A stretch of DNA of 38,307 nucleotides from a virus. The stretch lies in the IMG/VR virus record IMGVR_UViG_3300031707_000071, positions 1 to 38,307 of that record; one strand, 5' to 3'. The position numbers were made by a program, and so were the translations under genes. The notes under the pieces are model-generated. The model was not told the DNA's origin. It did not search any database and saw only the letters and a program-made list of their open reading frames with translations. Of the stretch, positions 1-38,307 are shown one piece after another. Each line of letters starts with the position of its first letter. Position 1 is the first letter of the stretch.

Positions 1-279
1 TATTCACATTGGCAGTTAGGCAAGGGTAATATTCCAATTAATTCTAAATATAGTTTATTGGTTGAATCATTACCAATTGAAGTATTTTTAACGGATGAAG
101 GGTATTGTGCAGTTTATGAACCATTAGCAGAATTAGATTATGGCAACTCACAAGAAATAGCAATATCTAATCTCTGGTTAAAATTGGAAGAATATTATGA
201 CTCCTTGCTTGAAAGAGAGGGAAAATTATCTATGGCTTTGCAGTCTGAGTTAGATCATATAAAAAAGTTTATGGGGTAA
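1..279 (+). CDS. HicB-like small protein, 5' end cut by the window edge
   Basis: The reading frame is open from base 1 to the TAA at 277-279. The core, with EGYCAVYEPL followed by the helix SNLWLKLEEYYDSLLERE, resembles the beta-beta-alpha partial RNase-H fold of HicB-type antitoxins. No HicA-like toxin gene is adjacent, so an orphan HicB-like protein is the most I can say. The first 26 bases are unique to this end; the copy at 38196 supplies a proper ATG and reads MEKNNIPINSK before joining the same frame. If the molecule is circular, the true protein is therefore about 87 residues. An internal TTG at 58 is an unlikely start. Function is inferred from fold resemblance only. Confidence 0.6.
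   Translation, partial: YSHWQLGKGNIPINSKYSLLVESLPIEVFLTDEGYCAVYEPLAELDYGNSQEIAISNLWLKLEEYYDSLLEREGKLSMALQSELDHIKKFMG
27..127. repeat. Left copy of 101-bp terminal direct repeat
   Basis: Bases 27-127 are identical to 38207-38307, the last bases of the window. Upstream of the match the two copies differ: GGCAAGGG here and GAGAAGAA there. An exact overlap at contig ends is the usual signature of a circular or terminally redundant phage genome in an assembly. The extra non-matching 26 bases at the left end could be a strain variant, an integration junction or an assembly tip. Confidence 0.9.
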
Positions 280-562: not shown

Positions 563-1050
563 AGTCATGAGCAGGTGATGGCGCGCGCGGCTTGGCATGA
601 CCGCGAATCACTGCGAAAGTGTGATTCTGAATCCTCCGCTCATCGATGAGTGAGTGACAGGATTCACTTGGCGCATCGCCTCAGTACCGCTGGCTTCATG
701 CCAGCGAAGGCGATTGAGGATAGTGTAACCTCTAATGGGCTTGTAGTGATAATGGGAGCATGCCACTTTTGCAAGGTGCGAGGTAAGAGTTCGACTCTCT
801 TCAAGTCCACTATGGTGTGCGGCGTGAAAGGAACACGTGGACTAACTGGCTACAGCCACAAGTCGCAGGCGCATCCGAAAGGAATGTCTTGCGATCCAGT
901 TTATAAGATATGTGGTAAATCCGGTGCAATTCCTGACACACCATATGACTGGAGCGGAGATAAGTGAATAAAGGGAACTAACATCTCCGTCATGGTAAAC
1001 CCTAATACCTGCCAGTCAACAACACCGCTCGAAAGGGCGGTGTTTGCGTT
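563..1050 (+). ncRNA. Large structured RNA candidate containing a tRNA-Ala
   Basis: The region is packed with strong helices in order: 586-590/601-605; 605-611/621-627; 629-635/659-665 enclosing the CTCAT-CG-ATGAG hairpin at 639-650; 675-681/708-714 enclosing a 7-bp helix 688-694/700-706; the tRNA at 737-809; a 9-bp closing helix 811-819/937-945; 946-952/1012-1018 enclosing 955-961/983-989; and an 8-bp hairpin 1021-1028/1037-1044 that could end the RNA. Most are perfectly paired, which is far more than expected for coding DNA. The one long open frame inside (650-967) looks accidental. Large ornate phage RNAs such as GOLLD and ROOL are known to lie beside tRNA genes; whether this belongs to one of them cannot be told without a covariance search. 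Exact ends are uncertain. Confidence 0.65.
737..809 (+). tRNA. tRNA-Ala (anticodon UGC)
   Basis: A complete 73-nt cloverleaf can be laid out. The acceptor GGGCTTG (737-743) pairs with CAAGTCC (802-808), with one G-U, and A809 is the discriminator. The D arm is 746-761 with loop TAATGGGA. The anticodon loop TTTGCAA (768-774) gives anticodon TGC. The variable loop is 5 nt. The T arm AAGAG/CTCTT has the canonical loop TTCGACT (790-796). CCA is not encoded. The D stem (GTGA/GCAT) is weak and pair 27-43 is C-C, so the molecule has diverged from host tRNAs. It sits inside a larger structured RNA, which suggests co-transcription and processing. Confidence 0.8.
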
Positions 1051-7693: not shown

Positions 7694-7974
7694 CCCCCTC
7701 CTACGATTATGACAAATGCGTGGAAATGGTCTGTTATCTGCTCGGCAAGGCGGTCGAGTATTCACGCGGAGAAGGCATGTCCGATTATGTCAGCCCGGAT
7801 GACAACTGGACATTCAACCAGGAGGTGTCGGAATGTCAGAATTTTGTGAGGGGCGCCATGTTTGAATTTTACTGTGATCTATTGGGCGCAGGTGAGTATT
7901 CAATAAGTGCAATCCGGGACTATTCGCAGGTTGAACTGGACTGGTGGCAGCCAAAACTAATAGGAGTGGTGTGA
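7690..7974 (+). CDS. Hypothetical acidic protein
   Basis: The 94-residue protein overlaps its neighbours by 4 bp on both sides. It is acidic and helical with aromatic residues (YDYDKCVEMVCYLLGKAVEY and VELDWWQPKL) and shows no motif that I recognise. Its position between the deoxyribosyltransferase-like protein and the methyltransferase may be a hint of a shared DNA-modification or anti-restriction role, but nothing in the sequence proves this. Confidence 0.55.
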   Translation: MTPSYDYDKCVEMVCYLLGKAVEYSRGEGMSDYVSPDDNWTFNQEVSECQNFVRGAMFEFYCDLLGAGEYSISAIRDYSQVELDWWQPKLIGVV

Positions 7975-8804
7975 GCGAAGTCAAATTAATACTCGGCGAC
8001 TGTCTCGAAGTGATGAAGTCTATCCCTGATAAATCGGTGGATGCTGTGATAACTGACCCGCCATACGGGATAGGGATTGCAGAATGGGATTTCGTTGATG
8101 TTAAAAGCATTGTTCTTGAATGTAATCGTATAACGAAAGATTATTTTTGCTTTTTTGGTCAATTCCCCTATGTTTTGGAATGGGTTAATAATTCACAAAA
8201 ATCATTTAATTTTAGAGAATCTATTGCTTGGGTGAAAAGGTTGGTCGGTGTTGGTTTTAACTTATCGCGCGGGAAAGAGGAAATATTTATTTATGGAAAA
8301 TCGCATGATAAGTTTTATCAAGTAAAAGGTAAATATGAGGATGTAAAAGTACCTGGAATTCTTTTCGATATTTCTACTATTGATGGAATAAAAAGGCATT
8401 TATCTGATATGCGGCACGAAATGAAAACGGGGAAAAAAGGAATAATCAGTCAGACGGATTCTCAATTTTGTAGATATAAAGATTGTCCAGGGAGAGAGCG
8501 TTCCCCTGAACTTGTGAACTATACAAATGTATGGTCATTTTTACCACCCTCGAGATTAAATGCTGGCAGAAAAGAATTTAATCATCTAACTGAAAAACCA
8601 GTTGAGGTTATGAAGCGACTTATTGAAATGACGACATTGCCAGAAATGATGGTACTTGACCCCTTCATGGGTTCAGGCACAACCGGCGTGGCTTGCGTGC
8701 AGACTGGAAGGAACTTTATCGGCATAGAGATTGACCCGAAATACTTTGCTATTGCCGAAAAGAGAATCAAGGACGCTCAGCAACAAATGAGGTTGGAATT
8801 ATGA
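7971..8804 (+). CDS. DNA methyltransferase, beta class (N4-C or N6-A)
   Basis: I choose the GTG at 7971 (AGGAG 4 bp upstream, overlapping the previous stop as GTGA); from there the protein reads VSEVKLILGDCLEVMKSIPD, the typical beginning of this family. The catalytic motif IV TDPPYGIG lies at residues 28-35 and the SAM-binding motif I LDPFMGSGTTG at 229-239, then IGIEIDPKYF. That order is the beta arrangement of exocyclic amino methyltransferases. No restriction endonuclease gene adjoins, so it is an orphan enzyme, probably shielding phage DNA from host restriction. Recognition sequence unknown. The middle (residues 140-195) is the target-recognition region. Confidence 0.9.
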   Translation: MSEVKLILGDCLEVMKSIPDKSVDAVITDPPYGIGIAEWDFVDVKSIVLECNRITKDYFCFFGQFPYVLEWVNNSQKSFNFRESIAWVKRLVGVGFNLSRGKEEIFIYGKSHDKFYQVKGKYEDVKVPGILFDISTIDGIKRHLSDMRHEMKTGKKGIISQTDSQFCRYKDCPGRERSPELVNYTNVWSFLPPSRLNAGRKEFNHLTEKPVEVMKRLIEMTTLPEMMVLDPFMGSGTTGVACVQTGRNFIGIEIDPKYFAIAEKRIKDAQQQMRLEL

Positions 8805-37403: not shown

Positions 37404-37955
37404 ATGATATTCGGTAAATATTATTCAGCGGAGGGGATTTATGAGATTGGTGGCAAATTCTTAAAACCACGATGGTTTGCCAATCTCACCAAGATTGATG
37501 TAATGGAAGCCAAAACCCTAATCGAAACGGGTTATGATGCTTCACCAGCCAAGCGAAGCAAAACTATCTTATTGGCTGGCATTGCACAGTGGGAGCGAGT
37601 ATTACATGGCGGTTTTGGGGATTGGTATGCTATGGCTGCATTACATTGTTATGATAGTACCGTGAACGCAGGCACTTGCCCGGAATGGGCTGGGGCTTTC
37701 TTGTCATCAAATAACTTTGTGATTCACGAATATGCTCCCACCAAAATCGTTTACATGCGCCCTGAAGCGGACTTGTATATGTACTTCAAGGATTCACCAG
37801 AGCCGGTTGTAGTTCCTCCAGTGGTAGTTCCTCCAGTTGTTACGCCCCCGATTGAAGAACCAGGCGGCACTACTGGTGGTACTACTGGTGGTATCACAAT
37901 TCCTGCCAGCATTGACATCCATATTTACGATCACAGTAAACCGAAGGTGTGGTAA
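37404..37955 (+). CDS. Protein with Pro/Val and Gly/Thr-rich linker, unknown function
   Basis: Residues 1-125 form a globular domain of unknown family (YYSAEGIYEIGGKFLKPRWF, ILLAGIAQWERVLHGG). A low-complexity linker follows (VVVPPVVVPPVVTPPI, then GGTTGGTTGG at 131-160). The C terminus ends in a short strand (IPASIDIHIYDHSKPKVW). Such a layout suits a secreted or virion-attached protein. The linker DNA contains short direct repeats (GTAGTTCCTCCAGT twice; GGTACTACT) prone to slippage. It is the last gene before the noncoding right end. Confidence 0.55.
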   Translation: MIFGKYYSAEGIYEIGGKFLKPRWFANLTKIDVMEAKTLIETGYDASPAKRSKTILLAGIAQWERVLHGGFGDWYAMAALHCYDSTVNAGTCPEWAGAFLSSNNFVIHEYAPTKIVYMRPEADLYMYFKDSPEPVVVPPVVVPPVVTPPIEEPGGTTGGTTGGITIPASIDIHIYDHSKPKVW

Positions 37956-37970
37956 AATAATATCAGAGTA

Positions 37971-38052
37971 ACGACAGATTTGAACAATAGAAGGCGGACT
38001 TTCGGGTCAGCAACAGATTAGAGTCTGCGGGATCCTTCGTTCAGAATGTCGT
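37971..38052 (+). ncRNA. Nested stem structure, RNA candidate
   Basis: Four helices nest perfectly: ACGACA (37971-37976) with TGTCGT (38047-38052); TGAAC (37981-37985) with GTTCA (38039-38043); GAAGG (37990-37994) with CCTTC (38034-38038); and CGGACT (37995-38000) with AGTCTG (38022-38027, one G-U). The result is one long arm with internal loops, closed by a 21-nt loop. No open frame fits. It resembles a folded small RNA or the leader of one. Confidence 0.6.
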
Positions 38053-38064
38053 AATTTTATCATT

Positions 38065-38110
38065 ATAAGAGGGCATACATAGGGTTAATCCGATTGTTAC
38101 TCCCTCTTAT
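38065..38110 (+). ncRNA. 9-bp hairpin, second arm of right-end RNA
   Basis: ATAAGAGGG (38065-38073) pairs with CCCTCTTAT (38102-38110) over 9 bp, with a 28-nt loop. It follows the nested arm by 12 nt and is followed at once by another strong hairpin, so the three may be one molecule. Confidence 0.55.
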
Positions 38111-38112
38111 CT

Positions 38113-38168
38113 GACCGCTCCTGTAAAGTGTACTCGGGTTCATACTCGACAGCGATACAGGGGCGGTC
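38113..38168 (+). terminator. 13-bp hairpin, late terminator or third RNA arm
   Basis: GACCGCTCCTGTA (38113-38125) pairs with TACAGGGGCGGTC (38156-38168) over 13 bp, the only imperfect pair being a U-G that needs plus-strand transcription. The 30-nt loop contains ACTCG twice. The bases after it, TTGATTT, are partly U-rich, so it may end late transcripts or the structured RNA. Confidence 0.55.
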
Positions 38169-38176
38169 TTGATTTA

Positions 38177-38185
38177 TGATATAAT
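38177..38185 (+). promoter_or_regulatory. Extended -10 promoter of the HicB-like gene
   Basis: TGATATAAT, identical to the extended -10 in front of the capsid leader, stands only 10 bp before the ATG at 38196. Transcription would start at about 38192, so the mRNA would be almost leaderless. No ribosome site is seen, consistent with that. Confidence 0.55.
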
Positions 38186-38195
38186 AAATAATATC

Positions 38196-38307
38196 ATGGA
38201 GAAGAATAATATTCCAATTAATTCTAAATATAGTTTATTGGTTGAATCATTACCAATTGAAGTATTTTTAACGGATGAAGGGTATTGTGCAGTTTATGAA
38301 CCATTAG
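38196..38307 (+). CDS. HicB-like protein, start of the gene (cut at the right edge)
   Basis: ATG at 38196 begins MEKNNIPINSKYSLLVESLP and runs to the window end in the frame that continues at base 128 of the left end. It is the natural 5' end of the gene seen at 1-279. The context (extended -10, no ribosome site) suggests a leaderless message. See the left copy for the fold. Confidence 0.7.
   Translation, partial: MEKNNIPINSKYSLLVESLPIEVFLTDEGYCAVYEPL
38207..38307. repeat. Right copy of 101-bp terminal direct repeat
   Basis: Identical to 27-127. The repeat ends exactly at the window end and starts 11 bp into the HicB-like gene, so joining the ends gives one intact gene of about 87 codons. 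Confidence 0.9.

What the first reader, a model, noticed from the sequence alone, without database searches (positions are those of the whole stretch)
37971..38168. Second structured RNA between the late genes and the genome junction
Three strong elements in a row (a four-helix nested arm, a 9-bp hairpin and a 13-bp hairpin with a U-G pair that fits only plus-strand RNA) fill a gene-free 240 bp. The nested arm is far beyond what a terminator needs. It could be a small RNA, a packaging-RNA-like element or a long regulatory leader.
Basis: seen in the sequence. Interest (0 to 1): 0.7.

Follow-up and report, generated by a model that had tools for sequence, protein, structure and literature searches.

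The report
Phage-borne DUF3800-VII RNA without its nuclease
The structure is a member of a catalogued but unexplained small-RNA family that normally sits beside a gene for a predicted RNase HII-like nuclease; this phage carries the RNA but not the nuclease, so it may use the RNA to control or trick a nuclease made by its host.

Summary
37956-38195 folds far better than shuffles (z -6.0 on plus, -4.4 on minus). The first element (37970-38058) is not anonymous: it matches Rfam RF02967, DUF3800-VII RNA, at 39.1 bits (cut-off 36.2). It is a divergent but covariation-supported member. Its nearest relative, in a phage with unrelated proteins, differs by compensatory changes in the helices. The two hairpins 3' of it match no Rfam family and look like a late-operon terminator region.

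Elsewhere this RNA is usually a free-standing transcript with its own promoter. It abuts the 3' end of a DUF3800 gene, nearly always on the opposite strand (22 of 24 viral cases). Several modules sit beside phage repressors or integrases. The DUF3800 protein is predicted to have an RNase HII fold (Z 12.3), with the motif YIDEAG. The window phage has no DUF3800 gene, and neither do the other two orphan phage contigs in the sequence held.

Most likely it is a small RNA that acts in trans on a DUF3800 nuclease of the host or a resident prophage, like pseudo-ToxI or Racr RNAs. The identity is well supported. The mechanism is inference (about 0.4). Packaging RNA is disfavoured.

The parts
37970..38058 (+). 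DUF3800-VII RNA (Rfam RF02967), divergent orphan copy
   Evidence: cmscan 39.1 bits, cut-off 36.2, full-length 1-90/90; model R3 built from three other members finds 37968-38060 with E 0.016, second only to L105 in 43.7 kb
37971..38052 (+). Outer helix 37971-37976 / 38047-38052 (ACGACA/UGUCGU)
   Evidence: two double compensatory changes relative to L105 (A-U to G-C, C-G to U-A)
37980..38044 (+). Middle helix 37980-37985 / 38039-38044 with AAUA bulge 37986-37989 on the 5' side
   Evidence: pairs kept in L105; lower pairs covary across the family
37990..38038 (+). Inner helix 37990-37993/4 with 38034/5-38038 (GAAGG/CCUUC) closing a three-way junction
   Evidence: same pairs in L105 and L084, changed pairs kept in L251
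37994..38011 (+). Junction hairpin 1 (GC-G-GACU UUCG GGUC-A-GC)
   Evidence: family hairpin, 4 of 6 pairs with two-sided changes; one G-A mismatch shared only with L105 among the seven aligned copies
38014..38027 (+). Junction hairpin 2 (CAGA...UCUG)
   Evidence: two double compensatory changes relative to L105
38027..38036 (+). Conserved core GCGGGAUCCU
   Evidence: matches L105 and L251 exactly and L084 apart from one base
37950..37958 (+). Promoter-like extended -10 (TGGTAAAAT) 11 nt before the RNA
   Evidence: consensus match 9 of 12 with TG; similar -10 boxes precede many family members
38065..38110 (+). 9-bp hairpin, no known family
   Evidence: z -2.57; no Rfam match to E 10
38113..38168 (+). 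13-bp stem with nested 6-bp stem, followed by UUGAUUUAU; probable terminator-type end of the late operon or of the RNA
   Evidence: z -6.20; no Rfam match; standard terminator scan negative, as it allows loops of only 3-8 nt

Best explanation
37970-38058 encodes an ~89-nt DUF3800-VII RNA, probably transcribed from its own weak promoter at the end of the late genes. In its usual setting this RNA is made beside a DUF3800 protein, predicted to be an RNase HII-like nuclease, and the pair travels as an accessory module of temperate phages and plasmids. I infer that the protein binds the RNA and that the RNA directs or restrains the nuclease. This phage lacks the nuclease, so the RNA most likely acts in trans: it occupies a DUF3800 nuclease supplied by the host or a resident prophage and thereby blocks or redirects it, as pseudo-ToxI and Racr RNAs do to their targets. 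Shown: family identity, covariation, the normal gene partner, absence of the partner here, predicted nuclease fold. Inferred: expression, protein binding, inhibition, benefit to the phage. The identity alone I hold at about 0.9; the confidence given is for identity plus mechanism.
For: Rfam match above the curated cut-off. Reciprocal match by a model built from other members, two of them DUF3800-linked; a model from window plus L105 ranks canonical L084 first in its contig, E 0.0016. Window against L105: 4 two-sided and 3 one-sided pair-preserving changes; against L084 and L251: 11 and 15 two-sided. Family covariation: 14 of 20 pairs changed on both sides, 83 cells against 28 in shuffles. 22 of 50 viral contigs with DUF3800 relatives hold the RNA above cut-off, with 22 of 24 hits on the opposite strand at the gene's 3' side. 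No DUF3800 in the window genome or in the L084 and L105 records. L105's proteins show no similarity to the window's although the RNAs are 86% alike by column, so the RNA moves between, or is selected in, unrelated phages. DUF3800 model: RNase HII fold, Z 12.3. Modules lie beside S24 repressors and integrases, and one beside a PD-T7-4 defence gene. Precedents: PMC3475682, PMC10651486.
Against: The score is only 2.9 bits over the cut-off. The model from 26 mostly DUF3800-linked copies does not see the window (2.6 bits). The window and L105 lack the GCGC internal-loop motif of most paired copies, so binding to a standard DUF3800 protein is not assured. No host is known and no expression data exist. 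Nothing here shows that DUF3800-VII modules are antiviral.
Confidence: 0.4

Rival explanations
1. Relic: the phage once carried a complete DUF3800-RNA module, lost the gene, and the RNA lingers without function.
For: No DUF3800 gene in the genome; the GCGC motif is lost.
Against: Helices keep pairing through compensatory changes and the junction core is intact; the same subtype occurs without DUF3800 in an unrelated phage, which decay would not predict.
Confidence: 0.2
2. The RNA works with a different protein, of phage or host, unrelated to DUF3800 nucleases.
For: Orphan subtype lacks the GCGC motif of most paired copies; L084, L105 and the window have no DUF3800 in the sequence held.
Against: DUF3800-paired copies L322 and L324 also lack the GCGC motif, and I saw no other gene shared next to the orphans.
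Confidence: 0.17
3. The whole 240 bp is the 3' end of the late operon: terminators and a stabilising 3' structure, with the RF02967 match of no consequence.
For: It follows the last late gene by 14 nt on the same strand; the strong 38113-38168 stem is followed by UUGAUUUAU.
Against: It does not account for a full-length family match, the conserved junction core or the compensatory changes. It may well be right for the two 3' hairpins alone.
Confidence: 0.1
4. Regulatory leader of the small gene starting at 38196 across the contig join.
For: Gene-free leader-like spacing upstream of an ORF.
Against: An extended -10 (TGATATAAT, 38177-38185) lies after all the structures, just before the ATG (read from the sequence); DUF3800-VII RNAs elsewhere are convergent to their neighbour, not leaders.
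Confidence: 0.06
5. Packaging RNA analogous to phi29 pRNA.
For: In L105 and L084 the RNA lies about 1.0 kb and 3.2 kb upstream of the large terminase gene (in L084 the gene was identified by similarity to the window's).
Against: In the window it is about 22 kb from the terminase; relatives with the same terminase gave no match; most copies sit with DUF3800, several in the lysogeny region.
Confidence: 0.03

Closest known systems
DUF3800-VII RNA (Rfam RF02967)
   Same: Full-length covariance-model match above cut-off; same outer, middle and inner helices, two junction hairpins and GGGAUCC core.
   Different: Near the cut-off; lacks the GCGC motif; one G-A mismatch in hairpin 1; no DUF3800 gene in the genome.
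Pseudo-ToxI RNA of phage PhiTE (PMC3475682)
   Same: Phage-borne non-coding copy of an RNA that normally accompanies a nuclease gene, without the nuclease.
   Different: ToxI is a tandem 36-nt pseudoknot antitoxin with a tested effect; this RNA is single-copy, has no known sequence relation, and its partner's role is unknown.
RNA anti-CRISPRs, Racr (PMC10651486)
   Same: Solitary viral copy of an RNA whose protein partner the virus lacks.
   Different: Racrs mimic CRISPR repeats; this RNA belongs to a family with no reported link to CRISPR repeats.
RNase HII (DUF3800 partner protein)
   Same: Predicted fold, Z 12.3 over 169 residues, and a YIDEAG motif like the RNase HII DEAG active-site motif (motif recalled, not tested).
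   Different: About 12% identity; activity untested; the protein is absent from this phage.

Membership tests
DUF3800-VII RNA (RF02967) | Covariance-model score at or above the curated gathering score | tested here: met
   39.1 against 36.2 bits, model 1-90/90
DUF3800-VII RNA (RF02967) | Consensus helices kept through compensatory change | tested here: met
   24 of 29 consensus pairs form in the window; double changes relative to each of six other members
DUF3800-VII RNA (RF02967) | Recognised by models built from other members | tested here: inconclusive
   Model R3 finds it (E 0.016); model R1 from 26 members does not (2.6 bits)
DUF3800-VII RNA (RF02967) | GCGC internal-loop motif seen in most paired copies (common, not strictly defining) | tested here: not met
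   Absent in window and L105; also absent in DUF3800-linked L322 and L324, so membership does not hang on it
DUF3800-RNA module | Adjacent DUF3800 gene | tested here: not met
   PF12686 gives no candidate anywhere in the window genome; hence filed as an orphan RNA, not a module
Packaging RNA (pRNA-like) | Conserved with the packaging module | tested here: not met
   No match in 50 records with related terminases, most of them fragments but including three of 35-43 kb
Pseudo-ToxI / Racr type RNA decoy | Experimentally shown inhibition of a host RNA-protein system | not testable with these tools
   Needs a phage and host experiment
Intrinsic terminator (38113-38168) | G+C-rich stem with short loop and U tract | tested here: inconclusive
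   Strong stem with UUGAUUUAU after it, but no match in the scan, which allows loops of only 3-8 nt

The most novel reading that the evidence does not exclude
Orphan DUF3800-VII RNAs in phages are RNA anti-defence factors: decoys or antidotes against RNase HII-like DUF3800 nucleases carried by competing prophages, plasmids and hosts. This would be another RNA-mimicry counter-defence besides pseudo-ToxI and Racrs.
Probability: 0.28. Interest if true: 0.8.

Novelty: new member of a known kind. Interest (0 to 1): 0.45.

Why it matters
I found no paper in the held library that assigns a function to DUF3800-associated RNAs. The comparative data here give a testable frame: the partner is predicted to be an RNase HII-like nuclease, the RNA is an independent transcript convergent with its gene, several modules sit in prophage accessory slots, and some phages carry the RNA alone. 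If the orphan RNA blocks the nuclease, it would help explain the family and add a case of RNA-based counter-defence.

Tried and rejected
The protein upstream (37404-37955) has no relatives in viral contigs or phage records and no Pfam, PHROG or PADLOC match. Degenerate DNA patterns for the core gave only L084 and L105 as true viral members; the genome matches to the pattern looked like chance on a helix check, and 18 of their genomes searched whole gave no match. BLASTN in phages and plasmids gave only weak hits that look like chance. Chloroflexota search, 400 genomes: none, but with shallow scoring. A first 25-sequence alignment (A5) mixed strands and was discarded. Close relative G001 ends at the equivalent of window 35971, so conservation of the two 3' hairpins could not be tested. 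A k-turn reading of the AAUA bulge was dropped because GA pairs with UC. The paper I recall as the original description of these RNAs (Weinberg 2017) was not held.

Full report
What is there. The gene-free stretch between the stop codon at 37955 and the ATG at 38196 folds much better than chance: -81.4 kcal/mol against -53.4 +/- 4.7 for shuffles on the plus strand (z -5.99), and z -4.41 on the minus strand. The contig is circular: bases 27-127 repeat 38207-38307 exactly, while the first 26 bases do not fit. The 'junction' is therefore most likely a cut made by assembly, not a genome end.

Identity of the first element. Rfam release 15 places 37970-38058 in RF02967, DUF3800-VII RNA, at 39.1 bits (gathering score 36.2), matched end to end. 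The margin is small, so I tested it. A model built only from L084, L316 and L251, the last two lying beside a DUF3800 gene, ranks L105 first (E 0.00085) and window 37968-38060 second (E 0.016) in 43.7 kb; the next hit has E 3.3. A model from window plus L105 ranks L084, a 72.4-bit family member, first in its contig with E 0.0016. A broader model of 26 copies, whose predicted structure lacks the inner helix, does not recognise the window. The window is thus a member, but a divergent one.

Structure. Against L105, the nearest relative, 4 pairs change on both sides and 3 on one side with pairing kept, and every mismatched consensus pair in L105 is also mismatched in the window. Against L084 and L251 there are 11 and 15 two-sided changes. 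Across 26 copies, 93.7% of cells pair, and 83 cells have two-sided changes against 28 +/- 4 in shuffles; slid controls pair at 35-45%. The supported fold is an outer, middle and inner helix closing a three-way junction with two hairpins and the unpaired core GGGAUC. Comparative evidence favours the junction.

What the family normally goes with. An actinobacterial genome has the RNA 59 nt after a DUF3800 gene. A Cupriavidus plasmid, a Rhizobium plasmid and Rhizobium phage RHph_TM3_3_3 have it beyond the 3' end of a DUF3800 gene or gene remnant, on the opposite strand. Of 50 viral contigs with DUF3800 relatives, 22 hold the RNA above cut-off. In 22 of the 24 contigs with any match the RNA is on the opposite strand on the gene's 3' side, mostly within 13-180 nt. 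Clean -10 boxes lie 5-10 nt before many of these RNAs, for example TATAAT in L260, L316 and L321, so it looks like an independent transcript. In the window an extended -10, TGGTAAAAT, lies 11 nt before the RNA. Neighbouring genes in several contigs are S24 repressors or integrases, and in one contig a PD-T7-4 defence gene. This is a usual slot for prophage accessory and defence cargo (general knowledge).

The partner protein. AlphaFold2 on 12 viral DUF3800 proteins gives a confident model (pLDDT 88.9, pTM 0.90). Its best solved matches are RNase HII structures, VIA Z 12.3 over 169 residues, Foldseek E 1.6e-4. Invariant D10, E11, E121 and D198, and the motif YIDEAG, resemble an RNase HII active site (recalled knowledge). 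An RNase H fold with a catalytic rearrangement was already reported for a Cas12a2-linked DUF3800 protein, together with the remark that DUF3800 is associated with putative ncRNAs (PMC10910872). I found no convincing PADLOC model for the protein.

Why the window is special. Its whole genome has no DUF3800 gene, nor have the L105 and L084 records. L105 and the window share the RNA (86% mean column identity) but no detectable protein similarity. L084 is a weaker orphan because its contig starts 288 nt before the RNA. The RNA gave no match in 50 records with related terminases, most of them fragments but three of 35-43 kb. It therefore behaves as accessory cargo, not as part of the packaging machine.

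Mechanism. Best reading, about 0.4: a trans-acting RNA that engages a DUF3800 nuclease in the host and blocks or redirects it. The precedents are pseudo-ToxI of PhiTE (PMC3475682) and Racrs (PMC10651486). Steps shown: family, fold, normal partner, absence of the partner, predicted nuclease fold. Steps inferred: transcription, binding, inhibition. The main rivals are a relic (0.2) and a different protein partner (0.17).

The 3' hairpins. 38065-38110 and 38113-38168 match no Rfam family, and no held relative covers them. The second is followed by UUGAUUUAU and then an extended -10 (TGATATAAT, 38177-38185) before the next ATG, which suits a terminator region followed by a new promoter. I do not count them as part of the RNA.

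Limits. The paper I recall as the original description of the family was not readable here. Bacterial searches scored few candidates per genome, so the spread of the family is underestimated. No expression data or host are known.

Noticed in passing
window 1-26 and 38181-38307: The ends overlap by 101 identical bases, but the first 26 bases of the contig disagree with the matching place at the other end; a likely assembly tip or a variant.
   Followed up: partly
L271 2805-2886, L273 2800-2882, L304, L305, L312 (minus strand), L335-L337: Candidate DUF3800-linked RNAs, most missed or scored below cut-off by Rfam (L335 is above it), found by model R1 or weakly by Rfam; several have a longer insertion (115-137 nt). 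Possibly a sister subfamily.
   Followed up: no
L264 1084-1884: A PD-T7-4 anti-phage defence protein (E 3.4e-79) is encoded directly upstream of a DUF3800 gene with DUF3800-VII RNA in a prophage.
   Followed up: no
L322 and L324: DUF3800-linked DUF3800-VII RNAs that lack the GCGC motif and have a short outer stem with a U-rich tail.
   Followed up: no
L251 1645-3093: The gene after the actinobacterial DUF3800-RNA pair encodes an AAA ATPase weakly like the MADS defence component mad8.
   Followed up: no
L263 2483-3217 (Mycobacterium phage Mask): A DUF3800-like gene in the immunity region, near a repressor and an integrase, annotated hypothetical, with no detectable DUF3800-VII RNA.
   Followed up: no
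window 737-810 and 7944-8804: A tRNA-Ala (TGC) and an N6/N4 DNA methyltransferase gene carried by the phage.
   Followed up: no
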